NCBI GenBank assembly: GCA_902786345.1
Contig: CADACB010000007.1
Span: 86,195 to 150,194 of the forward strand
Source: an uncultured Ruminococcus sp.
GTDB lineage: Bacteria; Bacillota; Clostridia; Oscillospirales; Acutalibacteraceae
Length of the DNA: 64,000 nucleotides
Reading direction: 5' to 3'
This document shows positions 30,248 through 46,434 of this stretch, piece by piece; within the stretch, counting starts at the first letter, position 1; each line of letters opens with the position of its first letter. The translations under genes were made by a program, and so were the position numbers. A model generated the notes under the pieces. That model had not been told where the DNA came from, ran no database searches, and saw only the letters and a list, made by a program, of their open reading frames with translations.

Positions 30248-30402
30248 CTATTTAGTTGTAATTAGTTTGTAGCCGTTTCTATTTGCATCATTTCCTATAT
30301 TGGTTGTTATAGTCCCTATTGTATCTTGGTCTTTTCTTATATTGCTATTATAATCGTCATAAACAATAGTTTCGTCACAACATTTATTGTTATCTATTTC
30401 TA
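30248..30402 (-). pseudogene. Recognition-module fragment (module G) of the multi-module C5 methyltransferase locus
   Basis: After the stop of the downstream catalytic piece, another frame continues IVEIDNNKCCDETIVYDDYN, then DQDTIGTITTNIGNDANRNG and a stop. This is the same type of unit as the upstream modules (VYD...G-I/T-x-T...G). An A5 run at the boundary separates the frames by one base. It has no start codon of its own. Confidence 0.6.
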
Positions 30403-31022
30403 CAATCCTTTTTCACTTGATTGATTAGCTTTTATTAAATTATTATTTATATCATCAAACAACCTATCTAACCCAATTTCAAAAGCTCCAATTCCCGAAA
30501 AATAACTACTTACTCGCAAATCATCAAACAAATACGGCATTGCAGAATACAACTCTTTAAATATGTAATATAAAACATCCGTTACAATAGAATTTCCGGC
30601 TTGCTTATATAATTGTGAATTTGCTTTATCTTTCCCTTTGTGAAACTTATCATTTATTGCTTTCTTTGCATTGTCGAAATTTTCATCAGAAAATCCCATT
30701 AACCTCCAACATTCTTTTGGGGTAAGTTTTCTAATTCTATAAGGTGTATTAGAGAAATCTATTTCTTCGGTATCAATCATTATTTTTAAACCACTTCTTT
30801 CACTTCTTAATGCAGGGGTATAGTTTGTATATGTTCTGCATACTTCCTCAAAACCATAAGTATCATCAATTACAATCACCTTTGGTTCTAAGCCCCCCCT
30901 TGACAAGTATTTAGTGTTGGTGCAATTCCATATTCCGAATAAATACGTCCAGATTGAGGATTGCCAAATGTTTTAGTTCCTTTCCTTATATTCCCTATTT
31001 GAATAATATTGTTTTTGCTCAT
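30400..31022 (-). pseudogene. Recognition module E plus motifs IX, X and I of a C5 methyltransferase; off by one base at a G7 tract
   Basis: ATG at 31022 follows GGAAGGAAAAGAAA and starts MSKNNIIQIGNIRKG; the module continues SGRIYSEYGIAPTLNTCQGG and stops at 30888. With one more G in the tract at 30893-30899 the frame continues LEPKVIVIDD, a further module, then RIRKLTPKECWRLMGF (IX) and AGNSIVTDVLYYIF (X). After motif X comes VSSYFSGIGAFEIGLDRL, which is motif I. Motif I normally opens the protein, so the order is permuted. The 30400-30906 part is open from a TTG but would lack module E. Confidence 0.72.
30893..30899 (-). repeat. G7 homopolymer tract in module E
   Basis: The tract encodes the Gly run between TLNTCQ and LEPKVIV. 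Eight G joins the module to the catalytic half; seven G gives a stop two codons later. Confidence 0.75.
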
Positions 31023-31161
31023 TTTCTTTTCCTTCCAAAACTATTAGGGGGGGGTCTTTGTACGATGTAGCAGGAATTGTAGGTGCAACACCTTTAATTG
31101 AATATATCCAACCTTTTTGACCGCCTGTTCCCTTATGTCCGAGCCTTATGATTTTGTTCAT
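30973..31161 (-). CDS. Recognition module D (mini-ORF) of the C5 methyltransferase locus
   Basis: ATG at 31161 follows AAGGAGAAAAG. The 62 codons begin MNKIIRLGHKGTGGQKGWIY and continue SIKGVAPTIPATSYKDPPLI. After VLEGK the frame reads the next module's start region out of phase until a stop. A C8 run (31047-31054) lies at the DPP codons and is in the in-frame state. Module D overlaps module E by 50 bases in a different frame. It may be made as a small separate polypeptide. Confidence 0.55.
   Translation of the reverse strand: MNKIIRLGHKGTGGQKGWIYSIKGVAPTIPATSYKDPPLIVLEGKENEQKQYYSNREYKERN
31047..31054 (+). repeat. C8 (coding strand) homopolymer tract in module D
   Basis: Eight C on the minus strand between TSYKD and LIVLEG. 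Seven gives an immediate stop. Nine gives a frame whose TGA stop overlaps the ATG of module E (ATGA). Confidence 0.7.
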
Positions 31162-31190
31162 CTTTTCTCCTTACAACGATACAAGGTTTA

Positions 31191-31325
31191 TTACCCCCCA
31201 CCCATTGTTAAAATAGTTGGGGCAATTCCGTTAGTATCATATACACAACCTCTGCCACTTATTGGTTTATCATTTGGGTTTTCGTAAACGCATCCAAATG
31301 AAATAGCAAATTTATTTTGTTTCAT
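31191..31325 (-). CDS. Recognition module C (44-codon mini-ORF) of the C5 methyltransferase locus
   Basis: ATG at 31325 follows TTGAGGAAAACCGAA. The product reads MKQNKFAISFGCVYENPNDK, then SGRGCVYDTNGIAPTILTMG and ends in Gly codons at a G6 tract (31194-31199) directly before TAA. With eight G the frame would continue NKPCIVVRR, matching the P-x-I-V pattern after the Gly run in modules D and E. It is exactly as long as module E. Confidence 0.55.
   Translation of the reverse strand: MKQNKFAISFGCVYENPNDKPISGRGCVYDTNGIAPTILTMGGG
31194..31199 (-). repeat. G6 homopolymer tract in module C
   Basis: It lies in the Gly run at the module end. Six G gives a stop at once; two more would keep the module frame open. 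Confidence 0.7.
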
Positions 31326-31515
31326 TTCGGTTTTCCTCAACTATATATAAATAACTATATCCTCCTATATGCCCAACGGGAGATGAAGTTAAACACATTG
31401 CAATACTGTTAGAATCATAAACTCTATTACCTTGCCTATATTGTTTCCCGAAATTTTTATAACCAAATCCTGCAAGCAAACGAGGTTTTTTATTATTTAT
31501 GCTCTTTATTTTCAA
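31312..31515 (-). CDS. Recognition module B of the C5 methyltransferase locus
   Basis: The frame reads KPRLLAGFGYKNFGKQYRQG, then NRVYDSNSIAMCLTSSPVGH and IGGYSYLYIVEENRNETK. It resembles the other modules in its VYD core. The only available start is TTG at 31515, without a clear ribosome site. Deleting one A in the A4 run at the junction would fuse it to the catalytic half upstream. Confidence 0.5.
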   Translation of the reverse strand: MKIKSINNKKPRLLAGFGYKNFGKQYRQGNRVYDSNSIAMCLTSSPVGHIGGYSYLYIVEENRNETK

Positions 31516-32432
31516 TCACACCATTCATAGATTGATTGCCAAAACCTTTATAATCTCTTGCGAGTAAAGTATTAGCGACATCAATTTCTTTATCAAATTT
31601 GCTACATTGATTGGAGAATAGCCCAGTAGCTATACCTGAACCATATCCCATTGATGTCGGTCTATACTTCCTCTCCCCCCCAGTCCTTACGGTGTTAGAA
31701 ACGTCTTTATCTAATTTACCGTTTTGAATAAGGTCATCAATTAACTTTTTTGCTTTTGGCGTGTTTACATAGTATTTTTCATCAACATCATCTTCAAGAA
31801 TATCTTTAAGACAAATATCACTCTCAAATCCGGCAGGAAATACAAATTTACCATTATCTAATTCTTTTAGAACAATAATGAGATAAACACGTTCACGGTT
31901 TTGCGGAACACCATAATCTTTAGCATTAAGCACTTGATAATATGTGTTATATCCGTATTCGTGCAATTCATTTATAAACATCTGAAATGTATCTTTGAAT
32001 TGTTTGCCGACAATATTCTTTACATTTTCATAAATTCCCCATTTAGGTTTATTTGCCCGAATAACTCTTAACCATTCTACAAGCAACGAGCTTCTTGATT
32101 TATCAAGGTTTTCTTTTCCGCAATTCGGACATTTATGCCTAACAAAATAATGAACTGTCAAGGGATTATACTCACAACCACAATCTTTACATTTCCATTT
32201 GCTGCCAGCTTGTTTACCAGCCACAGAAAAATCTTGACATGGGCTGCCGCCACAAATCATAGTAAATGGAGAAATCTTTGTTTCATCGACTTTTGTAATA
32301 TCTCCAAGATTAAGACTTTCGTCAACTTTATGAATTGCACAATAGCTTGTTGCAGCGTATTTATCAAACTCGCAAAAATTAACTAATGTATAGCCAGACG
32401 ACTTTGAATTATCTTTTTTATTTGTGTTTTAG
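31493..32432 (-). pseudogene. C5 methyltransferase catalytic half (motifs II to VIII plus module A), 5' end missing motif I and a start codon
   Basis: The frame is open from 32432 and reads SSGYTLVNFCEFDKYAATSY, GDITKVD, then GGSPCQDFSVAG (motif IV), ENVKNIVG (VI), PQNRERVYLI (VIII) and module A (RPTSMGYGSG, LLARDYKGFGNQ). A G7 run at 31675-31681 is in frame here. The first ATG is at 32260, after motif II. Motif I, which should precede GYTLVNFCEF, is instead at the end of the downstream piece (YFSGIGAFEIGL). A zinc-like insert CKDCGCEYN...CPNCGKEN follows motif IV. Confidence 0.75.
31675..31681 (-). repeat. G7 homopolymer tract in module A
   Basis: Seven G in the codons for RTGGE; the frame is open in this state. 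A change of one would truncate the protein near this point. Confidence 0.7.
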
Positions 32433-35098: not shown

Positions 35099-35857
35099 CT
35101 ATAATATCCTTTCTATTTTATTGTATAAAATATTATATTTTAATAAAAGTGTTTGTTCTCTATGATAATGACCGCAATACCATTGATTGAATATCAATCC
35201 ATTTTGTATAATTTTATCAAAGTATTCAGTCAGTATATCTCCACCACAAAATTCGGCTATACTTGCAACGCTTTGTGGCAAACAATGAGATATTACATAG
35301 TCAACCTTGTTATCGCATTTTATTAGGTTTTGTAAACCTAAATCCATTTCTGATTGATTTGGTAATTCTTCTTCCCACCACGAAATATGATTTATTCGGA
35401 ACATTTTACCTTGTTTAGACCATTGCCGGAATGTAAAAACAAATTCATCAACTGTTTTATAATCATCCATATCCAAAATTCCGTCAGCTATATCGTGAGA
35501 ACTTGCTCCGCCAAAGCAAAAGAATTTCTTTCCTTCAAATTCATATATATTGCCACGCATCAAATGAAATATATTTTCTCTGATTTTATGAACTTTCCCA
35601 CCGTAAAAATCTACGATGGGAAATTCATTGCTATATAATCTATCAAAATTTTCGTGATTACCGTCAACAAAACAAAGTGTAAACGGTTTATCACTCAACC
35701 ATTTGAGCCAATATCTTTCAGTAGTATTGTCATCCCAAATACCAAAATCACCACAAACAATTACTATATCATCTTTTGTCATTTCTTTTTGTTCTGGGAA
35801 ACGCTTAGTATTAAATTTAGTAAAATCGGCGTGACAATCTCCTGTTATGAATATCAT
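35099..35857 (-). CDS. Calcineurin-type metallophosphoesterase
   Basis: The 252-residue protein begins IFITGDCHADFTKF and has VCGDFGIWD, LCFVDGNHENF, ISHCLPQS and WYCGHYHRE, the five metallophosphoesterase motifs. The substrate is not readable; DNA, RNA or protein phosphates are possible. It overlaps the following gene by four bases. Confidence 0.88.
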   Translation of the reverse strand: MIFITGDCHADFTKFNTKRFPEQKEMTKDDIVIVCGDFGIWDDNTTERYWLKWLSDKPFTLCFVDGNHENFDRLYSNEFPIVDFYGGKVHKIRENIFHLMRGNIYEFEGKKFFCFGGASSHDIADGILDMDDYKTVDEFVFTFRQWSKQGKMFRINHISWWEEELPNQSEMDLGLQNLIKCDNKVDYVISHCLPQSVASIAEFCGGDILTEYFDKIIQNGLIFNQWYCGHYHREQTLLLKYNILYNKIERIL

Positions 35858-36837
35858 TCTTTCTTATTGCCAGCTTCAGACATAGCTTTTACTACCGCTT
35901 CACAGATAGCATCAATATAGTCCTGTCTATACCTATCCTGCTGTTTCTTTTCCTTTGCTTTCTTCTTGCGTTCCTTCTTCTCGGCGGCTTGCTTTTCTTT
36001 CGCTTCAATTTCAGCAAGTTCCTTTTCATACTTAACATCATCATTATACTTTTTAATTGCATAATCAATCAGCTTATTATATACAGAGCTGCCGTTTCCG
36101 CTACCGATAATATTTGACAGAAGTTTCTTTGTAATGCAAATCGAAATTCCCTGTTCAAGAGAGAATGTATCTTCTTTTGCAAGCACAGCCTTTTCCTGAG
36201 TACCATCCGCAAATTCAACAATGACAACTCGGTTATTGATAGGCTTTACCTTTACGATTGCTGGAATAACTGTCTTTACTTTACTGTCTTGCGTGAGAAT
36301 ATGTACTCCTGTTAGAGTCTCATACATTCTTGTTCTGGTCTTGCCGTCCGTAAAAACTTCTGCCGAGGGCTTATCGTTAATCTGATTTTCCTCGTTGTGC
36401 CAAGTCCCAAGCAGGTCTGAAACCTTAATGTTAGAAAACATATCTTTATTCACATTCTTAAATTCCATATTATTTACTCCTTCAAAGTTATTTGTTTTAT
36501 TTGAATTGCCGATTTCAGTCAGCAACTTAAATGCCCTATCCATAATATCTTTTTCACATAATGAAATTGTCTCGTTCGTCAACTTATTAATCACTTCGCT
36601 TGTTGTAGTTGCCGTCAACAATATTTCGGTTGGCATTGATGCCAATGCTGTTTTGCTACCTACTATATTTATTTTCGCTTTTGCTGAACCCTGCTCCTTA
36701 TATGGAATTGTAAATTCAATCGGTGGGTTAATCTTGCTTGCAAGTATCATATTGGGATAATCTTCTGCTTTGGCTTCAATTTTATAATAATTTTCTATTC
36801 CTTTAAGCTGACCATTTTTATCAAAAATATATTCCAT
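35854..36837 (-). CDS. Hypothetical protein with basic coiled-coil C-terminus
   Basis: The 327-residue frame has a beta-rich N-terminal part. An internal GGAGTAAATAAT-ATG starts MEFKNVNKDMF at about 36468, so a shorter second product is possible. The C-terminus is highly charged (EIEAKEKQAAEKKERKKKAK). Family not recognised. It ends the unit before the Cas12f-like locus. Confidence 0.55.
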   Translation of the reverse strand: MEYIFDKNGQLKGIENYYKIEAKAEDYPNMILASKINPPIEFTIPYKEQGSAKAKINIVGSKTALASMPTEILLTATTTSEVINKLTNETISLCEKDIMDRAFKLLTEIGNSNKTNNFEGVNNMEFKNVNKDMFSNIKVSDLLGTWHNEENQINDKPSAEVFTDGKTRTRMYETLTGVHILTQDSKVKTVIPAIVKVKPINNRVVIVEFADGTQEKAVLAKEDTFSLEQGISICITKKLLSNIIGSGNGSSVYNKLIDYAIKKYNDDVKYEKELAEIEAKEKQAAEKKERKKKAKEKKQQDRYRQDYIDAICEAVVKAMSEAGNKKE

Positions 36838-36934
36838 TTTATCTCCTTCGCTTTGTTAAATTTTAGATAATTCATCGAGCCATTTCTCAAATAATGGTCT
36901 TTTTATTTTTATATGAGAACCGATATGTATTATC
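36838..36934. other. Region preceding CRISPR array 1
   Basis: A 97-base gap. The last 27 bases before the repeat at 36935 could be one more spacer. CCATT...AATGG with following T-runs near 36880-36910 could be a weak plus-strand terminator hairpin. No gene seen. Confidence 0.35.
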
Positions 36935-37127
36935 GTTTGATAACCATATTTATTAATGTTGATTATCAACATTCACGATATGGCTACTCGGTTGTAGGTT
37001 GATTATCAACTTGTCTATTTCAGTATTCACCGCTTTGGTTTGATAACCATATTTATTAATGTTGATTATCAACCCTTTTATACGCAATTTGAATAATCGT
37101 TTTATTATATTTTTGTTAATAATCAAC
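36935..37127 (-). CRISPR. CRISPR-like mini-array 1 (two 36-base repeats, one truncated, one degenerate; 27-base spacers)
   Basis: Two identical 36-base repeats lie at 36935-36970 and 37038-37073, starting GTTTGATAACCATATTTATT and ending GATTATCAAC on the plus strand. Midway is a 13-base remnant GTTGATTATCAAC (36998-37010). The segments between are 27 bases on each side and unrelated. A degenerate repeat ends at 37127. Ends GTTTGATAA/TTATCAAC are inverted, as in CRISPR repeats. Type V-F repeats also begin GTTTG and end CAAC. Orientation is inferred as minus from the adjacent RNA. Confidence 0.75.
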
Positions 37128-37286
37128 ATTTGGTAATCTTTAAATATGGTCTTTGTGAGTGCTATTACGGCGTTGCGACTTCATAATCTAAATTAAGACT
37201 AAGGTTTGCAACTAATTGTAATGCCCTAAGATAAATCTTATCGGTTTTACCCGTCACATTCGGATGTCAAATCACCCGAAGAAAAG
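37115..37286 (-). ncRNA. tracrRNA-like structured RNA 1
   Basis: The minus strand directly after the Cas12f-like stop carries a hairpin CGGGTG-ATTTGA-CATCCG (37261-37278) and a 17-base block ending in GTAATAGCACTCAC (37152-37168). It ends in an anti-repeat AATGTTGATTATTAAC (37115-37130), which pairs with 15 of 16 bases of the array 1 repeat. A second diverged copy lies at 38796-38972. In the copies the hairpin stem changes in a pairing-preserving way, with G-U wobbles only if read from the minus strand. Confidence 0.75.
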
Positions 37287-37289
37287 TAA

Positions 37290-38624
37290 TTAAGATGCTT
37301 TTCTTTTATTTATGTCAATCCTTTTCGGTTTGTCATCTACAAATTCTGTTGACCTTGCGATATTCTGTGAACCATTAAAATCTGCATTTAATTCTACTCC
37401 ACATTTCAGGCACTTAAAATATGCTTGACCTCTTTCATCTTTGGGTCTGTTACCTGAATCGCAATATCCACAACAACTACAAGTCTGAGATGTATAAGCA
37501 GCTTTCACTTTTCTAACTATTATTCCGTATTTTTTAGCCTTATATGTTATGTATTGCTGTAATTGAAAGTAAGACCAATTACGATGCAAAAACTTATTAT
37601 CTGTTGTTACACCTGTCAAATCTTCTATATTGATATATTTAGCGTTATGTTTTAAAGCAAAATCAACTATCTGTTTTGAAAATGAATGATTGGCACTTTC
37701 AACCCAATGCTTCTCATATCCTGTATATCTATCAAGAGGTTTTAGTTTCTTTTTTCTACCGTGACCGCCTCTTGTATTTTTTAGTCCTTTTGCAAGTCTT
37801 TTCCTTTGAGCTTGAATTTTCGTTCTTTGCCCTATAAAAGTATCTCTATCACCAATAGACAACCTGACATAATTATTAGTATTCAATGAACACATTGCGG
37901 GTATCGCAGCCCCTAAATCAACCCCGACTACTATATTTTCATCAAGCTCCTTTTTAATAACTGGCATTTGTAAGGTAAGATTGAGTATTATCTTTTTTCC
38001 TTTAAATTGAATACTACTGCCACAAGGCTTATAAATACCTTTGAAAATATTATAAAATACACTTCTTAATTCGTGTGAACGGTGTGGATTTCCAAATACT
38101 AATTTGAAATGTATTCCATTTGCAAATTTCATATAAATATTTAGGTCGGCAACTGTATATATATTGTCGAATAGTTCTTCATCTGTCGCATACCCGTGAT
38201 AAAAGCTAAAAGTTTGACCTTGAATTATTAGCGGTGCATCAAGTTTTCTATTTGGTAATGAAACTTTGCCTTTATATAACCCATCCGCCTGTGATTTGTC
38301 TAAATCTTGGCAAACCTTTTGTCCTATACTCGATGGAGTTCTTAATCCAGTTTGAAAATTAAAATCTTCATTATATAAACTCCATTTAGGATTATCTTTT
38401 TTAAAATCCCTCTTTCCTCTCTTTTTAATATCATTTATTTCTTCATTTGTTTTTCCGCTAACTTTTGCGGAATATATAGCACTAATTAAATAATTATAAG
38501 CACGATTTTGTGAGTACATTCCATCACGAATATATTTGTAAACTCTATTTATTTCTTCTTTATTGCCATCAACAAGTAATTGAATTTTTCTTGTTATAGT
38601 ATATACATCCTTTTCAGATGCCAT
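37290..38624 (-). CDS. cas12f: Cas12f1-like (type V-F) compact CRISPR nuclease
   Basis: The protein has 444 residues. RuvC-I is VVGVDLGAAIPA (D236), then TRGGHGRKKKLKP (285-297), ANHSFSKQIVDFALKH, INIEDLTGV (E334), HRNWSYFQLQQYITYKAKK, AYTSQTCSCCGYCDSGNR, FKCLKCGVELNADFN (D415). The zinc finger is C382/C385 and C405/C408. The RGGHGR block, NW-Y-LQQ, CDSGNR and E-NADFN are shared with AsCas12f1 as I recall its sequence. The long N-terminal domain differs from plain TnpB. All catalytic residues are present. It lies between two array plus tracrRNA-like units and no cas1 or cas2 is near. Confidence 0.87.
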   Translation of the reverse strand: MASEKDVYTITRKIQLLVDGNKEEINRVYKYIRDGMYSQNRAYNYLISAIYSAKVSGKTNEEINDIKKRGKRDFKKDNPKWSLYNEDFNFQTGLRTPSSIGQKVCQDLDKSQADGLYKGKVSLPNRKLDAPLIIQGQTFSFYHGYATDEELFDNIYTVADLNIYMKFANGIHFKLVFGNPHRSHELRSVFYNIFKGIYKPCGSSIQFKGKKIILNLTLQMPVIKKELDENIVVGVDLGAAIPAMCSLNTNNYVRLSIGDRDTFIGQRTKIQAQRKRLAKGLKNTRGGHGRKKKLKPLDRYTGYEKHWVESANHSFSKQIVDFALKHNAKYINIEDLTGVTTDNKFLHRNWSYFQLQQYITYKAKKYGIIVRKVKAAYTSQTCSCCGYCDSGNRPKDERGQAYFKCLKCGVELNADFNGSQNIARSTEFVDDKPKRIDINKRKAS

Positions 38625-38672
38625 AATTAAACCTCACTTTTGTTTATAATATCTGTTTATTCGATTTTTTAA

Positions 38673-38795
38673 ATAACTTTTATGTTATGGTTGATAATCA
38701 TAAAATAACATTCATGTTATCAATTTGCTAATCTTAATGCTAACTGATTGAGTTCGATAATCATAAAAAAACATTCATGTTATAAATTCTTTTGT
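38673..38795 (-). CRISPR. CRISPR-like mini-array 2 (two near-identical repeats, one 27-base spacer)
   Basis: Repeats at 38690-38724 and 38752-38787 start GTTGATAATCATAAAATAAC or GTTCGATAATCATAAAAAAA and share CATTCATGTTAT. The spacer between is 27 bases if the repeats are 35-36 bases. A partial repeat (ATAACTTTTATGTTAT) lies directly before the first. The repeat is related to, but clearly diverged from, that of array 1 (both GTT-GATAA...CATA...TTAT). Confidence 0.65.
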
Positions 38796-38972
38796 TGTTA
38801 TTTTATATAAAAACATTATTATTAAATTGTTGACAACACATATTTTTTATGAGTTTTTGTGAGTGCTATTACACAACCATATACTTAATAAAACATTAAG
38901 ACCGAGGTTTGCAAAACTTGTTTGTTGTAACGCCACACATCCGGCAGTCGAATCTACCGATACAATAAAAGT
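38796..38972 (-). ncRNA. tracrRNA-like structured RNA 2
   Basis: The minus strand has the hairpin CGGTAG-ATTCGA-CTGCCG (38942-38959), TTTTGCAAACC, the hairpin CTTAAT-GTTTT-ATTAAG and the same 17-base block (38856-38872) as copy 1. Its 3' part contains ATAAAATAACA (38796-38806), complementary over 11 bases to the array 2 repeat but not to array 1. It is upstream of the Cas12f-like gene. Confidence 0.7.
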
Positions 38973-38985
38973 ATTATTTCATTGT

Positions 38986-39237
38986 TTAATATAATATCCA
39001 CCAATAATCGTATAACCTACGATATTTATTGTAATTCCAAACATCTTCTGATTGTCTTATCTTTTTGTTTGATTTTATTCGGAGCATCTTTGTTAGTCCG
39101 GGATTACGATTTTGGGAAAATCTTACATACCGTTCTTTCTTATCATCATAATATACACCAGCACAACAAGAGTTTTTAGTTTGTTTATAAATTCGTTTGT
39201 CACGTTTCCGCTGCTCAACAACACGAAAATATCCCAT
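38986..39237 (-). CDS. Small basic hypothetical protein
   Basis: The 83-residue protein is rich in Arg, Lys and Tyr (MGYFRVVEQRKRDKRIYKQT, YNKYRRLYDYWWILY). It may bind nucleic acid. It ends just before tracrRNA-like copy 2 and starts one base after the Thg1-like stop. Family not recognised. Confidence 0.55.
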   Translation of the reverse strand: MGYFRVVEQRKRDKRIYKQTKNSCCAGVYYDDKKERYVRFSQNRNPGLTKMLRIKSNKKIRQSEDVWNYNKYRRLYDYWWILY

Positions 39238-40101
39238 TTAATCACTCTTTTCAATGCTTTTGTCTTGTAGATAAATTAAATCTTCTATGTATTTTCTTCC
39301 GTCCTCTTTGAATATAGGGATTTCACCGTCATTTATCCAATATTTTTTATCAGCTTTAGTATCATATTGACGAACACAGCAGCTTCCACGCTTGTATTTT
39401 GTCGGCGTGTTATTCCAATTAACACCATATTCTGTCATTAACATCTCTTGTATTTCATTGCAACTTTTATTTAATAATTGTTTGTGTGAAAAATATGCTC
39501 TACCGACCATTTGAATTGAGTTTCTTGTTGCATCTTGCTGTCGCCAATAGAAATAATTGCAAACTTCGTCTTTTGGCATATTGAATAAACGAGCATCAAA
39601 GCAAGCCATATGTAATTCGTGACGTATAAGCATTAATCTATTATATTCGTCTATTTTATCAGGCAATACTTCATCACCATATGGATTATGTTCAGCATCA
39701 TAATAACAGTTATATATTGCATTACTAACATTCATATCCCAGAAATAATTAAATGCTGCTGTTGCCATACTTGCCGAAACACTTGAACACTTTTGAATAT
39801 TATAATTAAACCAAGCATCAGTATCTATTTTTCGATAATCAATCAATAACAGATTTATCTCGTCTGATTGTGTATAACCTAAAACACAACCTTGTATATG
39901 TTCGCATAAATACCGCATAGTATCTTGCATTGTTTTTGAAAGAATATCATCAAATGGTTTCTTTAATCCTTTTGTAAAAGTATGAAATGCCTTTCCATCT
40001 ATTCTAATTATAACTGGTGTTTTCTTTAAGAGATAATTTCTTGAAGTGTATTCATACTTTTTCATTCTTTTATCAAACTCGCTATATTTCAAATAACACA
40101 C
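39238..40101 (-). CDS. Thg1-like tRNA 3'-5' polymerase (tRNA-His guanylyltransferase family)
   Basis: The 287-residue protein has PVIIRIDGKAFHTFTKGLKK (metal Asp and catalytic core), GYTQSDEINLLL and a later RHELHMACFDARLFN plus WRQQDATRNSI. These are the Thg1/TLP motifs. TLPs add nucleotides to the 5' end of damaged tRNAs in a template-dependent way. Lying beside a tRNA array and in a genome with RNA ligase, kinase and RlaP, it probably belongs to the same RNA-repair set. Confidence 0.9.
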   Translation of the reverse strand: MCYLKYSEFDKRMKKYEYTSRNYLLKKTPVIIRIDGKAFHTFTKGLKKPFDDILSKTMQDTMRYLCEHIQGCVLGYTQSDEINLLLIDYRKIDTDAWFNYNIQKCSSVSASMATAAFNYFWDMNVSNAIYNCYYDAEHNPYGDEVLPDKIDEYNRLMLIRHELHMACFDARLFNMPKDEVCNYFYWRQQDATRNSIQMVGRAYFSHKQLLNKSCNEIQEMLMTEYGVNWNNTPTKYKRGSCCVRQYDTKADKKYWINDGEIPIFKEDGRKYIEDLIYLQDKSIEKSD

Positions 40102-40736: not shown

Positions 40737-40813
40737 TGGTCTGGGTAACAGGATTTGAACCTGCGACTTCTTGAACCCAAATCAAGCACTCTACCAAACT
40801 GAGCTACACCCAG
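40737..40813 (-). tRNA. tRNA-Pro (UGG)
   Basis: The minus strand folds as CTGGGTG...TACCCAG with anticodon arm CTTGA-TTTGGGT-TCAAG (UGG). The T arm is CAGGTTCAAATCCTG. Discriminator A and CCA are encoded. Confidence 0.9.
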
Positions 40814-40889
40814 ATATTCCCTGAAACCAACAGGGATTTTCATTTAAGGTCTTATGACATTATTAGTCGCCTTAAAGGTTGTTAATAGT

Positions 40890-40960
40890 TGCGAGAGGAT
40901 GGAATCGAACCACCGACCTCCAGATAATGAGTCTGGCAAGCTACCACTGCTCTACTCCGC
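40890..40960 (-). tRNA. tRNA-Met (CAU)
   Basis: The anticodon arm is CCAGA-CTCATTA-TCTGG (CAU). The T arm is GGTGGTTCGATTCCATC. The acceptor stem has wobble and mismatch positions, and CCA is not encoded. It could be an initiator-type tRNA. Confidence 0.75.
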
Positions 40961-41104
40961 ATTATAGGCTGGTTTTTTCGTTGCTCTCCAACTATCTTGT
41001 TCCTCAACAAGCAACATCGGGCAAGTTTTCTGTTCTTGCAAACTCTCTGTCCCATTCGTACAGCATTGATTTAGAGTTGTTTTTCGTGTGCCAGCCCACA
41101 CTTA

Positions 41105-41133
41105 TTAAGAAAAGCTGCCGTCTTTTCAGACGG
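41105..41133 (-). terminator. Hairpin after tRNA-Leu(CAA), terminator-like
   Basis: The minus strand reads CCGTC-TGAAAA-GACGG followed by CAGCTTTTCTT. A five-base stem with a short T-rich tail; it may also mark a processing site between tRNAs. Confidence 0.45.
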
Positions 41134-41220
41134 TGGTACTGCTGATGGGACTCGAACCCATACACCCTTTCGGATAACAGATTTTGAGTCTGTCTCGTCT
41201 GCCAATTCCGACACAGCAGC
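41134..41220 (-). tRNA. tRNA-Leu (CAA)
   Basis: Acceptor GCTGCTG pairs with CAGCAGT, discriminator A and CCA are encoded. The anticodon arm is ACAGA-CTCAAAA-TCTGT (CAA), and a long class II variable arm (CCGAAAGGG) is present. Confidence 0.88.
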
Positions 41221-41231
41221 ATATATTGAGT

Positions 41232-41720
41232 TTCTGCGTTTCCACATTGATTATCAACAATCTCAATTACACAATGCCTAAACACTTGAAAGTTGGTTTG
41301 CATTGCCACACCACTTCCACGCCTCATATTGACTACTGATAATCAATGCTTATTCACAGTATTATCCTACTTGTTTATTAGCAGCACTATCAATACACAA
41401 CTATTGACTAAACACATTAGATAATAAAACGATTGCTGAAAATTCCTCCTATTTGTGTTTCCCCGATTTATCGTATCGGTAGAGGAAGTAACTCTACAAA
41501 GATACCTGATAGGTGTCAGTACCGTAATGGTATATATCATTTCAACACATTACAGAGTGCATTACTCTCTTATCTTTATAGTTGCCGATAGATGCCATCA
41601 GCCATAGGAGCAGCATCCACGCACTCAGCTAACGAAGTCTTTGCTCAAAATCCTAAGATTTTGTCTTTCTATACTTTAATTATTTGCTCCGCCTATATTC
41701 GTAACATCGGCAATAATTTA
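41232..41720 (-). ncRNA. Candidate large ornate structured RNA between tRNAs
   Basis: About 490 bases without a gene are filled with helices: a perfect 12-base pair 41245-41256/41337-41348, nested CAATGC/GCATTG, a 7-base pair CTCCTAT/ATAGGAG (41446-41452/41604-41610), an 8-base pair TTGCCGAT/ATCGGCAA (41582-41589/41706-41713). A row of at least five small hairpins lies between 41463 and 41568. The last two long pairs cross, so a pseudoknot or alternative folds are implied. Size, phage setting and tRNA neighbours recall the ROOL and GOLLD classes, but I cannot confirm identity. Confidence 0.6.
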
Positions 41721-41722
41721 GT

Positions 41723-41795
41723 GGGCATTATAGGACTTGAACCTATGACCTGTTGATTATGAGTCAACTGCTCTCACCTACTGAGCTAAATGCCC
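41723..41795 (-). tRNA. tRNA with CAU anticodon (Met or Ile2)
   Basis: Acceptor GGGCATT/AATGCCC, D arm GCTCAGTAGGTGAGAGC, anticodon arm GTTGA-CTCATAA-TCAAC, T arm ATAGGTTCAAGTCCTAT. CCA is not encoded (ACTA follows). Confidence 0.88.
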
Positions 41796-42054
41796 TCGAT
41801 TGACACTTGAAACCCCTTTGACTTCTGTGCCAACAAAAAAGTTTTAGGCAAACAACCAACCGCAACTGATTTCTCAGGGTCGTCAGAACTTTTTTGGTTA
41901 AAGTTTTTAATAGCTACTCCCTTTGCAGTCTTTATGGAAGTTAATTTAATCGGAGTTTCACCGAACTATCTAAGAGGCTGTTGCCGTCTTTCCAGCTGCC
42001 ACCAATTCCTATACTTTTCGCAAGCTATATGTAATTGAGAACCAGTGAGCTTTC
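41796..42054. other. Non-coding gap between tRNAs with a long A/T helix
   Basis: CCAACAAAAAAGTT and AACTTTTTTGG (about 41830 and 41887) can pair. GGCTGTTGCCGTCTTTCCAG near 41986 again carries the GTCTTTC loop found elsewhere in this region. No ORF or clear tRNA is present. It may continue the structured RNA on the other side of the tRNA. Confidence 0.35.
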
Positions 42055-42128
42055 TGGTACAGAGAATAGGAATCGAACCTATTATTTGCGTATCTTCTTT
42101 CGCTGTTTCTCCATTAAACTATCTCTGC
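42055..42128 (-). tRNA. tRNA-like gene with abnormal anticodon loop
   Basis: Acceptor GCAGAGA/TCTCTGT, discriminator A and CCA are encoded. D arm GTTT...AAAC and T arm ATAGGTTCGATTCCTAT are good. The anticodon arm is GCG-AAAGAAGATA-CGC: only three clear base pairs, a long purine loop and no U33. The identity cannot be assigned. Confidence 0.65.
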
Positions 42129-42130
42129 AT

Positions 42131-42526
42131 TTATTCCAACTGCTTCAGTTGCTCAATTACCCCACAGACTTCATCATATATTTCTGCGGTAGTCCATTGT
42201 TTTCTTCCAAGAAACGAACTATAAGTACGATTCAAAGAATAGCCTGAAAAATCGCAAGCGTGATGATAGTCCCAGCCTATCCAATGACCTTTGATATTAT
42301 TTCTTTCACTTCCGCTAAATGTAACTCCCCCGTGCGGATATATGGTATCCTCGTTTTCTAACTTATGATAATCTTTGTATCTTGAATGATTTTCTGGAAT
42401 TGCTACATAAGCACAAGGATGTGTGCCATAACTTACAATCAGGTATTCATACCCATCAATATTTCCTCTTGCTAAAATATCTCCGTCAGTACGTTCGCTT
42501 GAATAAACCATTTCTTTGAAATTCAT
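42131..42526 (-). CDS. Conserved phage protein of unknown function
   Basis: ATG at 42526 follows AAGGAGAAATGATT; the frame extends upstream into tRNA-Leu(UAA). The 131-residue protein has YEYLIVSYGTHPCAYVAIPE and GGVTFSGSE...GHWIGWDYHHACDF, a pattern I recognise from many phage proteins with no known role. It sits inside the tRNA array. Confidence 0.65.
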   Translation of the reverse strand: MNFKEMVYSSERTDGDILARGNIDGYEYLIVSYGTHPCAYVAIPENHSRYKDYHKLENEDTIYPHGGVTFSGSERNNIKGHWIGWDYHHACDFSGYSLNRTYSSFLGRKQWTTAEIYDEVCGVIEQLKQLE

Positions 42527-42582
42527 AATCATTTCTCCTTGGTAATTTCTTCGTGTGTCCGAATGGAAAACTATCTTGTATT

Positions 42583-42669
42583 TGGTAGGGGTAGTGGGAC
42601 TCGAACCCACACGGTATTTCTACCACGGGATTTTAAGTCCCTTGCGTCTGCCTATTTCGCCATACCCCC
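42583..42669 (-). tRNA. tRNA-Leu (UAA)
   Basis: Acceptor GGGGGTA pairs with TACCCCT, discriminator A and CCA are encoded. The anticodon arm is GGGA-CTTAAAA-TCCC (UAA), and a class II variable arm TGGTAGAAATACCG is present. Confidence 0.92.
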
Positions 42670-42674
42670 ATGTT

Positions 42675-42712
42675 GTCCGATGCTATTTAACAACTTTCAA
42701 AGTTATAGCAAT
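42675..42712 (-). promoter_or_regulatory. Leader hairpin between the class II element and tRNA-Leu(UAA)
   Basis: CCGATTGCTAT and ATAGCATCGG pair around the inner AACTT-TGA-AAGTT. It lies between the class II element at 42721 and the tRNA. Confidence 0.45.
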
Positions 42713-42720
42713 CGGATTTA

Positions 42721-42750
42721 TCGTTATCGTGTTGTTCTTACTGACTTTTC
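42721..42750 (-). promoter_or_regulatory. Conserved upstream element (class II)
   Basis: The minus strand reads AAAAGTCAGTAAG followed by AACAACACGATAACG. It overlaps the 3' end of a small gene and precedes tRNA-Leu(UAA). Confidence 0.55.
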
Positions 42751-42899
42751 ATATCTTTTAAACTTTCGTCTTTGCTTTCGTATTCATCCAACCGCTGCAA
42801 AGCATTGTATATCTCAAACAATAAACTCCTACATGTTGGATTGCTGTCGTTACTTTTCTTTCGTGTTTCAATAATTTGCATTAACTGTTTTGTATCCAT
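42738..42899 (-). CDS. Small helical protein (53 residues)
   Basis: It reads MDTKQLMQIIETRKKSNDSN, then LLFEIYNALQRLDEYESKDE. AAGGCGG lies upstream of the ATG. It lies directly downstream of the permuted tRNA. Unknown function. Confidence 0.5.
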   Translation of the reverse strand: MDTKQLMQIIETRKKSNDSNPTCRSLLFEIYNALQRLDEYESKDESLKDMKSQ

Positions 42900-42934
42900 T
42901 AGTAACCGCCTTTATAATTAATTGTGGAAATTAT

Positions 42935-43030
42935 TACATCTGTTTATCTGCTGCTCTCCCATTGAGCTACACTCCGTTATTATCGGAGTGGTAGGAATCG
43001 AACCTACAACCGACAGTCCCCAAATTTACA
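42935..43030 (-). tRNA. Circularly permuted or split tRNA (3' half precedes 5' half)
   Basis: On the minus strand a 3' half comes first: GGGGACTGTCGG, T arm GTAGGTTCGATTCCTAC, acceptor CACTCCG. After the seven-base linker ATAATAA comes the 5' half: acceptor CGGAGTG, then D arm GCTC-AATGGGA-GAGC and AGCAGATAAACAG. CACTCCG and CGGAGTG pair perfectly. The anticodon arm would have to be closed across the outer ends (GCAG with CTGT). Two decayed tandem tRNA copies are the simple alternative. Confidence 0.6.
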
Positions 43031-43350
43031 AGAAGTAAGATGTGATATAGCCACGCTGTAAATTGTCATTCGTTCGGAAATGCTGATTTCTAAATCCACA
43101 ATTTTCTAAAATCTTCTGTTATTTAAGAAGTAAGAAATCAAATAGCCGAACATTTAGAAAGTTAAAATGCGGAAATTTAATATTCAATTCAAAATAATCC
43201 CAAATCTTTATTTTACAAATAGAAGTATGAATATTATTAGCCGCAAAGATAAGTATATAGCGGAAAGCGGATTATCATTATTACATTATGTAGTGCTGGA
43301 TGACACTCCAGCGATAGTTTATTTTTTAGAAGTATGATAACCCATAGCCG
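43031..43350. repeat. Four copies of AGAAGTAWG-N7-WTAGCCG element, cluster 1
   Basis: Plus-strand copies start at 43031, 43126, 43221 and 43328. The two conserved blocks are always seven bases apart. The first copy is bounded by AATTTACA/TGTAAATT, the fourth by TTTAG/CTAAA, so they can form stems. A separate hairpin GCTGGA-TGACAC-TCCAGC lies at about 43286-43303. The stretch has no ORF and lies just downstream of the 742-residue gene. Confidence 0.65.
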
Positions 43351-43359
43351 CTAAATGAT

Positions 43360-45588
43360 TTATATTAACTGACCCATAAAATAGTCAGTATCAAACGCTG
43401 TGATAATCGGAACTTCCGTCTTTTCTTTAAGCACTCTACGCTCATTACCTGTTTCCTCGTCAATTTCCGTTACTACTTCATACGGAACTGTTTTATCATT
43501 GCTGAAAATAATATCAGCTTCGTTTCTATCATTGACGATTTCACCTCTTGCAAGAGCATTAAAATATACAAGGTCATAAAGATTGGGTTTCTGCATATTT
43601 GCAAGACCGTAACAAGTAGCAGTCACACCACGCAGATTACTCTCAAGGTTATTACCACCGTATCTTGTTGCCGCAATTTGGAGGTTCATATCACACCAAA
43701 TAAACTTACGTTCCTTGCAATCAAAGATGACAGGAATTGAAACATCACTATCTGATGTTAAATCAAGTTTCATCTCAACAGCACTCGGCTCAAAGATTTC
43801 ACCACTATTTACATCTTCCCTTTCCATCCATCCGAACCTTGCGTGTGGAATATTGGAAAAATGCTGTTGGGTATAGCTATAAACTTGGAATACTACATAT
43901 CTTCCGGCATTTTCGTTTACTTCATCAATGTCGAAGTCGATAAATTCCGCAACACCTTTACCATTTGCATCTCCGCCATTAGTTATATCACCTGAATGAC
44001 AAGCGTTAAACCTTTGTGAGCGTAACTGAGTGTATGAGATATGAGTAATTAAATTCCAATTTTCGTCATAGATTGCACCTGACAAGTCAAGGTCAACTCT
44101 GCCATAACAAGTGTTATCAATATTAGTCCACCAAATGAAACCTCTAACTGCTTTTGCACTTTCCTTAATAGGAACTCGGCTACCTCTTACAATAGATTTA
44201 ATAGCCTTACTTGCAGACCTTTGGCTAAAAGGCACAAAGTAGTTTGAAAATTCCTTGTCAATATAAACCTTGCCAAGTTTCTCTCTACTTTTGTATTGCT
44301 TATCCAAAGCATCTTCACATATACTTGTGATATTCTCGCAAACAACGCTGCTAATCCGAGGAACTTCCTTATTAAGCACAACTGCCTTTGCAAGATTTCC
44401 TTTTGGGAAAATAACCCTTACATTATCCTGTGACACTCTGTTAATAAAGTGTTGTCTTGCTTGTAAAAGTACAGGCGTTGTGACTTTATCAGCGACTTCA
44501 GAAAATCTATGAACTACATACAATGGTTTATCACTATCACGTAACAGTTTATCCAGTTTCCTTGCAAACTCGCCGGGTCTTACTCTCAGCAAATCTGCCG
44601 CTTCAATAGTTTCACCATTTTCGATAAGTTTCTGTACCTTGCCAGCAAAGAATAATGGCTTCTTTTCATTACGCAAAGTATTAAACGCTTTATTAACATT
44701 CTGATACCGCTTTTCTCTGAACTCAAACGGATGGAATATTTCGGCAGCTCTTACCCATTCATATTGGTATCTAAATAAATCCTCCGTAATGTTGCCGCAA
44801 TTTGAAAGTAAATCCATAACTATTCTACGCTGATACCTTTTCAGGCTCTTGTATTTCGTATTCTGCGCAAGACTAATATCGCCATCTGAAAAAGCCGTTA
44901 TCAATCTCAACACATCTGTTGCGGTTTTGAAGTATCTTTCAATTTGTGCTGAATTTTTGATTGGTGCGTTCTCAAGGATAAGTTTACTAATATAAGCAAC
45001 ATTCTCTTTAAGGAAAATCTCACTTGGGAGATATTTTCTGTAATCTTTGAACTGTTTTACGATTGTTGCTATATCTTCCTTGTCCTGCTGTGAGATTGAT
45101 GTCTTTGAAGCTGCTAAATCATTAAGCAAACTCCCAATAATTGAGGGTTTGGAAATTGATAAAACAGTCATTTTATTGTTGTCAATCAGCGGCAAACGTT
45201 CATCTTTGGAGTATTCCGGCATAATCTCACCAAAAGTCCAATAATGAATTATTGCATTGATAAACAGCTCTGCGCTGCTTGCTTCCATTACCTGTCTTGG
45301 AAAATTCGGGTACATTGGTGTATATTCTACATCCGCACCTCTCAATTCCTTTAGAGCAGGAATAAGAAACTTGTAAAACTCCTGAATTTCTGCGTATGTA
45401 AAATATGTTAAAGTTTCAAACAGCTCTTTGGAAAAGGTAAATCCTAAAGATTGAACATTTTTGAGTGCTGCCACTATCAATGCTTTTTCATTTGGTTTCT
45501 GTTTGTAATTAGGATTCTGACTTTCGATAATCAGAGAGTCTTTTCTTCGTAATGCGATTTTACATACATCTTTCGATACACAAAACAT
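43360..45588 (-). CDS. Large helical protein with a TerD-like C-terminal region (MXAN_6230/SCO0854-like)
   Basis: ATG at 45588 follows AAGGAGAAATGAA; the frame extends upstream without a site. The 742-residue protein has a long helical N-terminal half, then LLRVRPGEFARKLDKLLRDS and TPVLLQARQHFINRVSQDN followed by RVIFPKGN. These match the MXAN_6230/SCO0854 family as I remember it. The C-terminal part (FIWWTNIDNTCYGRVDLDLS, SVEMKLDLTSDSDVSIPV-like) resembles TerD. It is flanked on both sides by the AGAAGTAWG-N7-ATAGCCG elements and sits in a tRNA array. An RNA-binding role is possible but unproven. Confidence 0.6.
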   Translation of the reverse strand: MFCVSKDVCKIALRRKDSLIIESQNPNYKQKPNEKALIVAALKNVQSLGFTFSKELFETLTYFTYAEIQEFYKFLIPALKELRGADVEYTPMYPNFPRQVMEASSAELFINAIIHYWTFGEIMPEYSKDERLPLIDNNKMTVLSISKPSIIGSLLNDLAASKTSISQQDKEDIATIVKQFKDYRKYLPSEIFLKENVAYISKLILENAPIKNSAQIERYFKTATDVLRLITAFSDGDISLAQNTKYKSLKRYQRRIVMDLLSNCGNITEDLFRYQYEWVRAAEIFHPFEFREKRYQNVNKAFNTLRNEKKPLFFAGKVQKLIENGETIEAADLLRVRPGEFARKLDKLLRDSDKPLYVVHRFSEVADKVTTPVLLQARQHFINRVSQDNVRVIFPKGNLAKAVVLNKEVPRISSVVCENITSICEDALDKQYKSREKLGKVYIDKEFSNYFVPFSQRSASKAIKSIVRGSRVPIKESAKAVRGFIWWTNIDNTCYGRVDLDLSGAIYDENWNLITHISYTQLRSQRFNACHSGDITNGGDANGKGVAEFIDFDIDEVNENAGRYVVFQVYSYTQQHFSNIPHARFGWMEREDVNSGEIFEPSAVEMKLDLTSDSDVSIPVIFDCKERKFIWCDMNLQIAATRYGGNNLESNLRGVTATCYGLANMQKPNLYDLVYFNALARGEIVNDRNEADIIFSNDKTVPYEVVTEIDEETGNERRVLKEKTEVPIITAFDTDYFMGQLI
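45129..45151 (+). repeat. Palindromic 23-base repeat, copy 3
   Basis: It is identical to 15861-15883 (reverse strand) and lies inside the 742-residue gene, where it encodes KPSIIGSL. Confidence 0.6.
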
Positions 45589-45656
45589 TTCATTTCTCCT
45601 TTTTAAAATTTTTTCGGAAATTGTAAAAACTATGATTTCAAAATTTAAAAACATTT

Positions 45657-45761
45657 AGAAGTAAGTTTTTACATAGCCGTAAAGTGAGGTGTTTTGTTAC
45701 GGTAATCTGATAATCTAAATGAAATTTGTAGTTTCTTTAGAAGTAAGATTATCAATAGCCG
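45657..45761. repeat. Two copies of AGAAGTAWG-N7-ATAGCCG element, cluster 2
   Basis: Copies at 45657-45679 and 45739-45761, each followed by TAAAGTG and preceded by TTTA-type sequence, so TTTA/TAAA stems are possible. They lie between the 742-residue gene and tRNA-Lys. Confidence 0.65.
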
Positions 45762-45767
45762 TAAAGT

Positions 45768-45839
45768 GTGCCATCGGAGACTCGAACTCCGGCTCTTCCG
45801 ATTAAAAGTCGGATGCTTTACCAACTAAGCTAATGGCAC
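45768..45839 (-). tRNA. tRNA-Lys (UUU)
   Basis: Acceptor GTGCCAT/ATGGCAC, anticodon arm CCGA-CTTTTAA-TCGG (UUU), T arm CGGAGTTCGAGTCTCCG. CCA is not encoded. Confidence 0.92.
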
Positions 45840-45912
45840 TCGGTCAACAGTTTATAAGCAATCTGCAACAATATTATTATTGAAAACTGATTTGCCTTAT
45901 AAACTGTATAGT

Positions 45913-45982
45913 AGCGAGTAGGGGAATTGAACCCCTGACTTCAGCGTGAAAAGCTGATGACTTAACCACTTGTCGAACTCGC
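45913..45982 (-). tRNA. tRNA-Glu (UUC)
   Basis: Acceptor GCGAGT/ACTCGC, anticodon arm TCAGC-TTTTCAC-GCTGA (UUC), T arm AGGGGTTCAATTCCCCT. CCA is not encoded. Confidence 0.88.
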
Positions 45983-45989
45983 CATTTTT

Positions 45990-46130
45990 ATCGAGCCACA
46001 AGTCTTTCACTTGTGGGAGTAGTGGGTGGATTCGTCTGCGCATCACTTACCACCAGTCTATTCATGCCGACTTAGCTTTCAATTACTTTACACTACTTTT
46101 TCTTGATTGATATTTTTAAGAGATTTTCTT
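45990..46130. other. Non-coding gap with hairpins
   Basis: CCACAAGT-CTTTC-ACTTGTGG is a perfect hairpin at about 45994-46014. GGTGG...CCACC can pair further on. No gene is seen. The CTTTC loop is shared with other hairpins in this region. Confidence 0.45.
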
Positions 46131-46132
46131 TT

Positions 46133-46214
46133 TGGTCGGAACTGATAGGATTTGAACCTATCCCCACCACTCCATACCACGGAGAGTATGCTTTACCACT
46201 ACACCAAGTTTCCT
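46133..46214 (-). tRNA. tRNA with irregular anticodon loop (Gly UCC or Arg CCG possible)
   Basis: T arm GATAGGTTCAAATCCTATC is good, and a CCA-like end may be encoded. The anticodon stem is CATAC/GTATG with an eight-base loop TCTCCGTG and no U33 in the usual place. The 5' acceptor strand GGAAACT has one extra A relative to AGTTCC. Confidence 0.6.
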
Positions 46215-46313
46215 AATCTCTGCTGCATTACTTCTGAGCTGTACAGTTTCATCGTGAAGTAATTTGTACATTGCAACATATCTCACAAGGCTTTTTACTC
46301 ACTACTCGATAAT

Positions 46314-46434
46314 TGCAGATAACAGGATTTGAACCTGTAAATGAACAATGAAGTATCTCTGTCCTTATCGGATTGAAAGTTGATACTAACTATATCCTCG
46401 CCGAATAAGTGTTTGCCTATTCCACCATATCTGC
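46314..46434 (-). tRNA. Class II tRNA (Leu-like) with about 29 extra bases in the anticodon loop
   Basis: Acceptor GCAGATA/TATCTGC is perfect, D arm GGTGGAATAGGCAAACAC is Leu-like, the variable arm is GGACA...TGTTC and the T arm is ACAGGTTCAAATCCTGT. The anticodon stem TTAT/ATAA is extended by TCGG/CCG. It encloses an insertion with its own small hairpin (GATA-TAGTTAG-TATC). The anticodon cannot be read without knowing whether the insertion is removed. Confidence 0.65.

What the first reader, a model, noticed from the sequence alone, without database searches (positions are those of the whole stretch)
36935..38972. Phage-borne miniature type V-F (Cas12f1-like) CRISPR locus without adaptation genes
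Seen: a 444-residue RuvC/zinc-finger protein with D236, E334 and D415, carrying RGGHGR, NWSY-LQQ and CDSGNR blocks that I know from AsCas12f1. It is flanked by two small arrays with ~36-base repeats and 27-base spacers, each beside a structured RNA. No cas1 or cas2 is present. Known: Cas12f effectors of 400-550 residues need a tracrRNA and work with CRISPR arrays. Inferred: a phage-carried guide system aimed at rival phages, plasmids or host genes.
Basis: partly seen in the sequence, partly recalled or inferred. Interest (0 to 1): 0.93.

Follow-up and report, generated by a model that had tools for sequence, protein, structure and literature searches.

The report
Phage-borne mini CRISPR with two tracrRNAs
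A large bacterial virus carries a very small CRISPR DNA-cutting enzyme of a known family, flanked by two separate guide-RNA units, and comparison with related viruses suggests that the whole cassette moves from place to place in their genomes.

Summary
The 444-residue protein (37290-38624, minus) is a full-length Cas12f1 of the former type V-U3, with intact D236/E334/D415. It groups with RhCas12f1 and a strongly supported clade mainly from phage contigs, apart from TnpB. It lies in a circular 150-kb phage contig (terminase, portal, tape measure, integrase). No cas1 was found in the genome bin.

Each tracrRNA pairs most strongly with a repeat of its own module, and a loop-repeat pseudoknot carries a matching double change between modules. 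One left repeat is cut to 13 bases; the right repeats are imperfect.

New here: the 2.15-kb cassette sits elsewhere in one related phage and was not found in another, where homologues of its two flanking genes are adjacent. Right after the last repeat, at the guide position, lies the in-frame 3' end of an excisionase gene. A related phage shows a similar but weaker junction.

No convincing spacer target was found. Best reading: a mobile, adaptation-less type V-F1 nuclease cassette. TnpB-like homing is the boldest reading not excluded.

The parts
37290..38624 (-). cas12f1 (type V-U3/V-F1) gene, 444 aa, RuvC D236/E334/D415, zinc ribbon C382/C385/C405/C408
   Evidence: PADLOC Cas12u3 E 2.5e-108; PDB 8hr5 E 1.3e-71 and RhCas12f 9nzp E 4.5e-63; tree; residues
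37100..37285 (-). left tracrRNA (modL): core hairpin 37249-37280, closing stem GUGA...UCAC, anti-repeat near 37115-37150; ends approximate
   Evidence: model R1 33.8 bits, a training row; alignment with modR; duplex with own repeat -28.0 kcal/mol, 0 of 1000 shuffles
37038..37073 (-). left array, first repeat (36 nt)
   Evidence: 100% identical to 36935-36970
37011..37037 (-). left spacer L1 (27 nt)
36998..37010 (-). truncated repeat, 13 nt (5' part of the repeat only)
36971..36997 (-). left spacer L2 (27 nt)
36935..36970 (-). left array, last repeat (36 nt)
36856..36934 (-). in-frame 3' end of a Tn916-Xis-like excisionase gene (1 base, 25 codons, stop) starting at the repeat junction; its first 27 bases occupy the terminal guide position (L3)
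   Evidence: PF09035 E 8.9e-5, profile 45-68 of 69; blastx 60% over 25 aa to the Xis of related phage G1439
38816..38966 (-). right tracrRNA (modR): core hairpin 38930-38961, anti-repeat near 38818-38850; ends approximate
   Evidence: model R1 28.8 bits, a training row; duplex with own repeats -12.5 and -18.0 kcal/mol
38753..38788 (-). right array, first repeat (boundary uncertain by about 2 nt; ends TTATCGAAC)
38726..38752 (-). right spacer R1 (27 nt, boundary uncertain by about 2 nt)
38690..38725 (-). right array, last repeat, degenerate (32 of 36 identical to the first)
36838..38985 (-). whole cassette with the xis fragment (2148 bp between two genes whose homologues are 25 bp apart in related phage G1439)
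   Evidence: L190:2387-2680 matches 38986-39237 (35% over 71 aa, E 2.8e-6) and L190:2706-3281 matches 35854-36837 (41% over 136 aa)

Best explanation
It is a compact, adaptation-less type V-F1 (V-U3) CRISPR-Cas12f1 cassette carried by a 150-kb integrase-bearing phage. One RuvC nuclease is served by two diverged tracrRNA + mini-array modules. Each tracrRNA pairs with repeats of its own module and closes a pseudoknot with the repeat's 3' end. The nuclease then most likely cuts double-stranded DNA matched by the 27-base spacers. The cassette as a whole has changed position among related phages. Shown: family, intact catalytic residues, predicted RNA pairing with covariation, no Cas1, differing positions. 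Inferred from the family: dsDNA cleavage, 5' PAM, dimer. Not shown: targets, expression, how the cassette moves.
For: PADLOC Cas12u3 2.5e-108 over residues 10-431. Tree of 45 rows: clade of P0001, L030, L029, L032, L033, L043 and L109 at 100/99, joined at 100/99 to the group with RhCas12f1; 7 TnpB-like rows and the window's own TnpB split off at 97/91. Core hairpin: 94.4% of cells paired, 4 of 6 pairs with double changes, no slid version above 57.4%. Duplexes trL:rL -28.0, trR:rR2 -18.0, trR:rR1 -12.5, trL:rR1 -7.7. Pseudoknot test over 18 modules: 4 of 100,000 permutations reach the observed sum; modL TTTGA:TCAAA against modR TTCGA:TCGAA. Phage genes; circular; Cas1 absent. Mobility.
Against: No spacer target found. 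One left repeat is truncated and the right repeats are imperfect, so part may be decaying. trR pairs with the left repeat (-14.9) better than with its own first repeat (-12.5, reached by 75 of 1000 shuffles). Only 6 of 18 own pseudoknot pairs rank first. Pfam sees only the TNB domain above its cut-off, and NCBIfam's generic TnpB model is above its cut-off while no Cas12f model is. No promoter or terminator signal above shuffles. No structure could be predicted.
Confidence: 0.78

Rival explanations
1. The cassette is a transposon-type TnpB with an omega RNA and chance repeats, not a CRISPR effector.
For: guided_TnpB NCBIfam model above cut-off; PHROG 'transposase' hits; the RhCas12f1 gene lies just downstream of a frame that looks like a serine resolvase (by eye); the flank at the guide position is a gene end.
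Against: The tree puts it in Cas12f1; 36-nt repeats with 27-nt spacers; separate tracrRNA-like units with matching anti-repeat; relatives L029, L030, L031, L032, L033 and L043 carry arrays of 3-8 repeats; no transposase domain above cut-off in three neighbouring frames.
Confidence: 0.05
2. A decaying remnant: the protein is intact but the arrays are being lost, so the system no longer acts.
For: 13-nt truncated repeat; right repeats imperfect; trR:rR1 duplex not clearly better than shuffles (75 of 1000); no targets found.
Against: Open frame with the catalytic and zinc residues; both pseudoknots are kept through a matching double change; two left repeats are identical.
Confidence: 0.15
3. A regulator: the nuclease-family protein binds DNA without cutting and controls host or phage genes, like TldR or nuclease-dead Cas12f.
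For: Phage-encoded RNA-guided regulators exist (TldR; PMC13418256, start of abstract in the search listing); few fixed spacers.
Against: D236, E334 and D415 are intact and invariant among the five members of A4.
Confidence: 0.06

Closest known systems
RhCas12f1 and CnCas12f1 (type V-F1, former V-U3)
   Same: Full-length homology (9nzp 4.5e-63, 8hr5 1.3e-71; the name CnCas12f1 for 8hr5 is recalled); a tracrRNA core near the Rh gene is found by the model (29.9 bits, not a training row); repeat array.
   Different: The Rh locus shows one core and a 6-copy array. Here: two diverged modules, 27-nt spacers, phage genome.
Cas12f1 clade of large phages (L029, L030, L031, L032, L033, L043; L109 in a Roseburia contig)
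   Same: 37-50% identity, same core hairpin; pseudoknot-type pairing.
   Different: Of 8 loci counting the window, only 3 (window, L029, L109) show two complete core hairpins by the model, L029's second at E 0.032; spacers there are mostly 29-30 nt.
TnpB with omega RNA (IS200/IS605, IS607)
   Same: RuvC/TNB nuclease; the sequence after the last repeat is the end of a gene, as a TnpB guide is the element's flank (recalled).
   Different: Separate tracrRNA, arrays, no transposase domain above cut-off in the three neighbours scanned; the tree excludes it.
Virus-borne mini-CRISPR arrays and huge-phage CRISPR-Cas systems
   Same: Few spacers, no adaptation genes in some (review PMC11656645, passages read).
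   Different: Mini-arrays use host Cas proteins; here the effector and tracrRNAs are carried too.

Membership tests
Type V-F1 (V-U3) Cas12f1 | Sequence groups with known Cas12f1, apart from TnpB | tested here: met
Type V-F1 (V-U3) Cas12f1 | Small effector (about 400-600 aa) with RuvC D/E/D and zinc ribbon | tested here: met
   444 aa; D236, E334, D415, C382/C385/C405/C408
Type V-F1 (V-U3) Cas12f1 | CRISPR array beside the gene | tested here: met
   short, one repeat truncated, imperfect on the right side
Type V-F1 (V-U3) Cas12f1 | tracrRNA with anti-repeat and pseudoknot | tested here: met
   by sequence and predicted pairing only; RNA not observed
Type V-F1 (V-U3) Cas12f1 | No adaptation genes (V-U3; PMC7229846, passages) | tested here: met
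   Cas1 PF01867: 0 matches in G000, 9 of 14 control genomes positive; Cas2 not searched
Type V-F1 (V-U3) Cas12f1 | Cuts dsDNA beside a 5' T- or C-rich PAM, as a dimer | not testable with these tools
   no protospacer found; structure tool off
TnpB (IS200/IS605, IS607) | Transposase or transposon ends | tested here: inconclusive
   no transposase domain above cut-off in three neighbouring frames and none recognised by eye; transposon ends not examined
TnpB (IS200/IS605, IS607) | Guide equals element flank | tested here: inconclusive
   xis 3' end after the last repeat; no closely matching intact target DNA
TldR (nuclease-dead TnpB) | RuvC residues lost | tested here: not met

The most novel reading that the evidence does not exclude
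The phage Cas12f cassette is a homing element. Its array end works like a TnpB guide: the sequence beyond the last repeat is the flank of a former insertion site (an excisionase gene here, a phage gene's 3' end in the L029 phage). The nuclease cuts cassette-free alleles in co-infecting phages, and repair copies the cassette in. So CRISPR arrays and TnpB-like spread coexist in one system, and new guides come from insertion rather than from Cas1-Cas2.
Probability: 0.2. Interest if true: 0.88.

Novelty: new variant of a known kind. Interest (0 to 1): 0.6.

Why it matters
Type V-F1 loci without Cas1-Cas2 are known, but how they gain guides and what they do is open. A phage clade in which the cassette changes position, carries duplicated and re-paired tracrRNA units, and can end in a gene fragment at the guide position makes that testable. 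It may link TnpB-style selfish spread to CRISPR. Two tracrRNAs that mostly prefer their own repeats are also natural material for separate guide channels on one small nuclease.

Tried and rejected
Spacer targets. L1 lies under 8 of the 10 non-self rows in 329 family genomes, but the eight sites lie in unrelated frames at 18-23 of 27 matches. One (L207, 23 of 27, in a small coiled protein next to what looks by eye like a lysis module, read KAVNIKIDN against KAVNTEID in the spacer) is only a lead: two other unrelated sites also reach 23, and a phage search with that protein gave 9 records at under 60% identity that I did not compare with the spacer. R1 has 21 of 27 in the phage's own structural region, where the one shuffle gave 19: not pursued. 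The flank L3 has an exact 20-mer in viral contig L189, but it is read in another frame, the match ends at base 20, and one such hit in four scans is near chance by my own rough estimate.

Self-targeting of host Xis genes: the two intact copies in the bin are not similar in DNA to the fragment. Pattern scan for the tracrRNA in viral contigs: 0 hits. Protein alone as query in viral contigs: 0 relatives; the alignment gave 83, of which 80 were kept. Structure prediction was off, so no fold comparison. A base count of the window fragment against the G1439 xis (17 of 56) was shifted by one base and is not used; one search's alignment is.

Full report
What is there. The open frame at 37290-38624 (minus) encodes 444 residues. 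PADLOC's best model is Cas12u3 (E 2.5e-108, residues 10-431), followed by Cas12f. The nearest solved chains are 8hr5 (1.3e-71; CnCas12f1, a name I recall) and 9nzp (4.5e-63), which a 2026 paper lists as RhCas12f (PMC13186708, passages read). Locus L023/L026 encodes what reads by eye as that same protein. Pfam gives the Cas12f1-like TNB domain above cut-off only. NCBIfam's generic TnpB model is above its cut-off and no Cas12f model is, so family names alone do not settle the case. A tree of 45 proteins does: P0001 lies in a clade of 7 rows (100/99) with L030, L029, L032, L033, L043 (viral contigs) and L109 (Roseburia contig). At 100/99 that clade joins a group of 13 rows holding RhCas12f1, Clostridium, Priestia, plasmid and two viral rows (L034, L035). 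Seven TnpB-like rows and the window's own TnpB fall on the other side of a 97/91 branch. L031 was left out of the tree as near-identical to L030, and two short rows (L124, L170) were dropped. D236, E334 and D415 and the four zinc cysteines are present.

How common. Searched with P0001, matches other than its own genome numbered 0 of 149 in the family (E 1e-40), 0 of 393 in the order (1e-45), 3 of 390 in the class and 1 of 397 in the phylum (1e-40); these samples overlap. The best phage-record matches were 34-36% identical over about 70% of the protein.

The carrier. The window is G000:C7:86195-150194 and C7 is 150,194 bp. Its first 99 bases are also its last 99, as in a circular assembly. Terminase, portal, tape measure, tail and integrase models match on it. 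Two viral records share TerL (59-65% over the aligned pieces), portal, ligase and other genes with it: G1440 (160.7 kb, holds L029) and G1439 (155.5 kb, holds L190). Cas1 was not found in G000, while 9 of 14 control genomes rang; Cas2 was not searched.

The guide units. Both arrays sit beside a tracrRNA-like unit on the minus strand, and the two modules align over their tracrRNA parts. A 32-nt core hairpin was aligned in 10 modules (9 distinct): 94.4% of cells pair, 4 of 6 pairs show changes on both sides (25 of 500 shuffles reach that number; the other four measures are reached by 0, 0, 12 and 0), and slid versions reach at most 57.4%. A model of it (R1) was run on 34 sources with E up to 3 and gave 31 hits. 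Ten of these are its training rows, including both window cores. It lists two in L109, L029 and L016 and four in L038; several of these are weak (L029's second 0.032, L016 0.095, L038 0.02-0.076), and L033 has a partial second hit at the contig end (E 1). L017 gave no hit. A second core below L032's gene is seen by eye only. The left tracrRNA pairs with its own repeat at -28.0 kcal/mol (0 of 1000 shuffles) and with the right repeats at -7.7 and -8.7. The right tracrRNA pairs with its own repeats at -18.0 and -12.5, but also with the left repeat at -14.9 (11 of 1000 shuffles), and the -12.5 value is reached by 75 of 1000 shuffles. The core's loop also pairs with the spacer-side end of the repeat: over 18 modules the own pairing sum is reached by 4 of 100,000 permutations, although only 6 of 18 own pairs rank first, related rows are not independent, and I chose the repeat ends. 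In the window the left loop has TTTGA against TCAAA and the right one TTCGA against TCGAA, a matching double change; the last right repeat (ending ATCAACC) does not keep it.

Array details. Left array, read in gene direction: full repeat, spacer L1 (27), a 13-base repeat remnant, spacer L2 (27), full repeat, then the flank. The remnant ends ATCAAC and the full repeat ends ATCAAAC, so a slip between these two would explain it (inference). Right array: two imperfect repeats around one 27-base spacer. Spacers of the relatives examined are mostly 29-30 nt.

Mobility. In G1439 the homologues of the genes on either side of the cassette (38986-39237, 35% identity over 71 aa; 35854-36837, 41% over 136 aa) are 25 bp apart, at L190:2387-2680 and 2706-3281. 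No Cas12f match appeared among frames of 50 aa or more of G1439, held in full as overlapping stretches. In G1440 the cassette lies at 132.5 kb, between homologues of window genes 54540-55430 and 57240-58214, a place without cassette in the window. L030 and L031 have a homologue of the window's array-side neighbour gene downstream of their arrays (29-34% identity), in line with the tree. L109 and L032 have their cassettes near homologues of yet other window genes (6014-9617; 30400-32260). So the cassette changes place in this phage group. The direction (gain or loss) at each place is not shown.

The ends. After the last left repeat come one base, then the last 25 codons and the stop of a Tn916-Xis-like excisionase: PF09035 E 8.9e-5, profile 45-68 of 69, 23.1 bits against a cut-off of 22.9. 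The Xis of G1439 is 60% identical over those 25 residues (39 of 55 bases counted on the alignment). C7 has no other Xis by that model, in which this fragment itself scores below cut-off (21.7 bits). The 5' part of the gene was not found in C7. In L029 the sequence after its single upstream repeat (boundary uncertain by one base) reads LYIPCKYSK*, against GYIQWKYSKN near the end of window gene 54540-55430 (21 of 27 bases). That gene's homologue directly precedes the L029 cassette. Of all 27-mers of the 11.3-kb L029 locus only those starting at 4949-4956 and 32-34 reach 21 matches in window 54301-54900, and 0 of 2000 shuffles do; but 32 of 300 shuffles reach 21 somewhere in C7, and I looked at this place only after the hit. 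In a blastx check of 13 flanks against frames of C7 and related viral loci, only the window's left flank matched a gene end of another phage; the L029 upstream flank did not, so its case rests on the base match alone, and the other 11 gave nothing of the kind. None of the window's guides matches G1439 or G1440 above 20 of 27.

Targets. None convincing. Phage collection: no clear match. Plasmids: left array only. Viral contigs: 20-base exact scans of L1, L2 and R1 gave 0, and the flank L3 gave one 20-base match. Own genome: nothing clear. 329 family genomes: weak matches in unrelated genes. Arrays of L032 and L029 in the phage collection: no match, and weak matches, those listed lying mostly beyond the last L029 repeat.

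Known or new. Type V-U3 systems without adaptation genes, with tracrRNA and 5' T- or C-rich PAM, are described (PMC7229846, passages). Phage-borne Cas12f1-like proteins are mentioned for a landfill megaphage (PMC12607003, passages). Another survey reports a single phage-encoded Cas12, a Cas12a (PMC12676247, passages). Plasmids are enriched in V-F (PMC11656645, passages). A TnpB gene drive in plasmids has been reported (PMC11870625, title and start of abstract). I found no report of two diverged tracrRNA-array modules around one phage cas12f, nor of Cas12f cassette mobility or homing, in the listings of searches of the open library, most of whose papers I did not open; Al-Shayeb 2022 and Altae-Tran 2023 were not held. 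This is not proof of absence.

Noticed in passing
window 7227-9617 (-): 796-residue protein whose homologues in G1439 and G1440 (about 437 residues) match as two separate blocks; the extra middle part runs from ...KMHGCFAKGTKI to ...VHNTSART and looks like an intein (label recalled) in a phage enzyme gene.
   Followed up: partly
window 24661-25758 (-): Ordinary IS200/IS605 TnpB (NCBIfam 427.9 bits, cut-off 425); no transposase was looked for beside it.
   Followed up: no
L038 261-292, 4823-4854, 6315-6346, 7309-7340: A viral contig with four tracrRNA-core hits (E 0.02-0.076) around one cas12f, each followed by one to three copies of a repeat of about 19 nt with very short gaps (by eye): perhaps natural single-guide units.
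   Followed up: partly
L109 4801-4832 and 6287-6318: Cas12f in a Roseburia contig has tracrRNA cores on both sides of the gene; the downstream one runs, by eye, straight into a single repeat-like hairpin and guide without an array.
   Followed up: partly
L017 1970-2640: Alicyclobacillus phage MMB025: by eye two tandem tracrRNA-like + short-array units upstream of its cas12f-like gene; the record annotates only one array as CRISPR, and model R1 gave no hit there.
   Followed up: no
L016 2349-2380 (-) and 4810-4841 (+): Bacillus arachidis plasmid: arrays and weak tracrRNA-core hits (E 0.095) on both sides of the cas12f gene, in opposite orientations.
   Followed up: no
window 40737-46770 (-): tRNA cluster (11 by ARAGORN, one of unclear type), with a Thg1-like tRNA-His guanylyltransferase gene at 39238-40101 close to the cassette.
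   Followed up: no
window 62690-62775 (-): SAM riboswitch (54.4 bits) on a phage; the frame at 28131-29243 looks like an S-adenosylmethionine synthetase (by eye, not searched).
   Followed up: no
window 59536-59690: 75-base tandem repeat (2.1 copies, 98% match) inside a coding frame.
   Followed up: no
L189 1057-1076: Exact 20-base match to the flank after the last left repeat, in a phage gene next to a peptidase M15 gene.
   Followed up: partly
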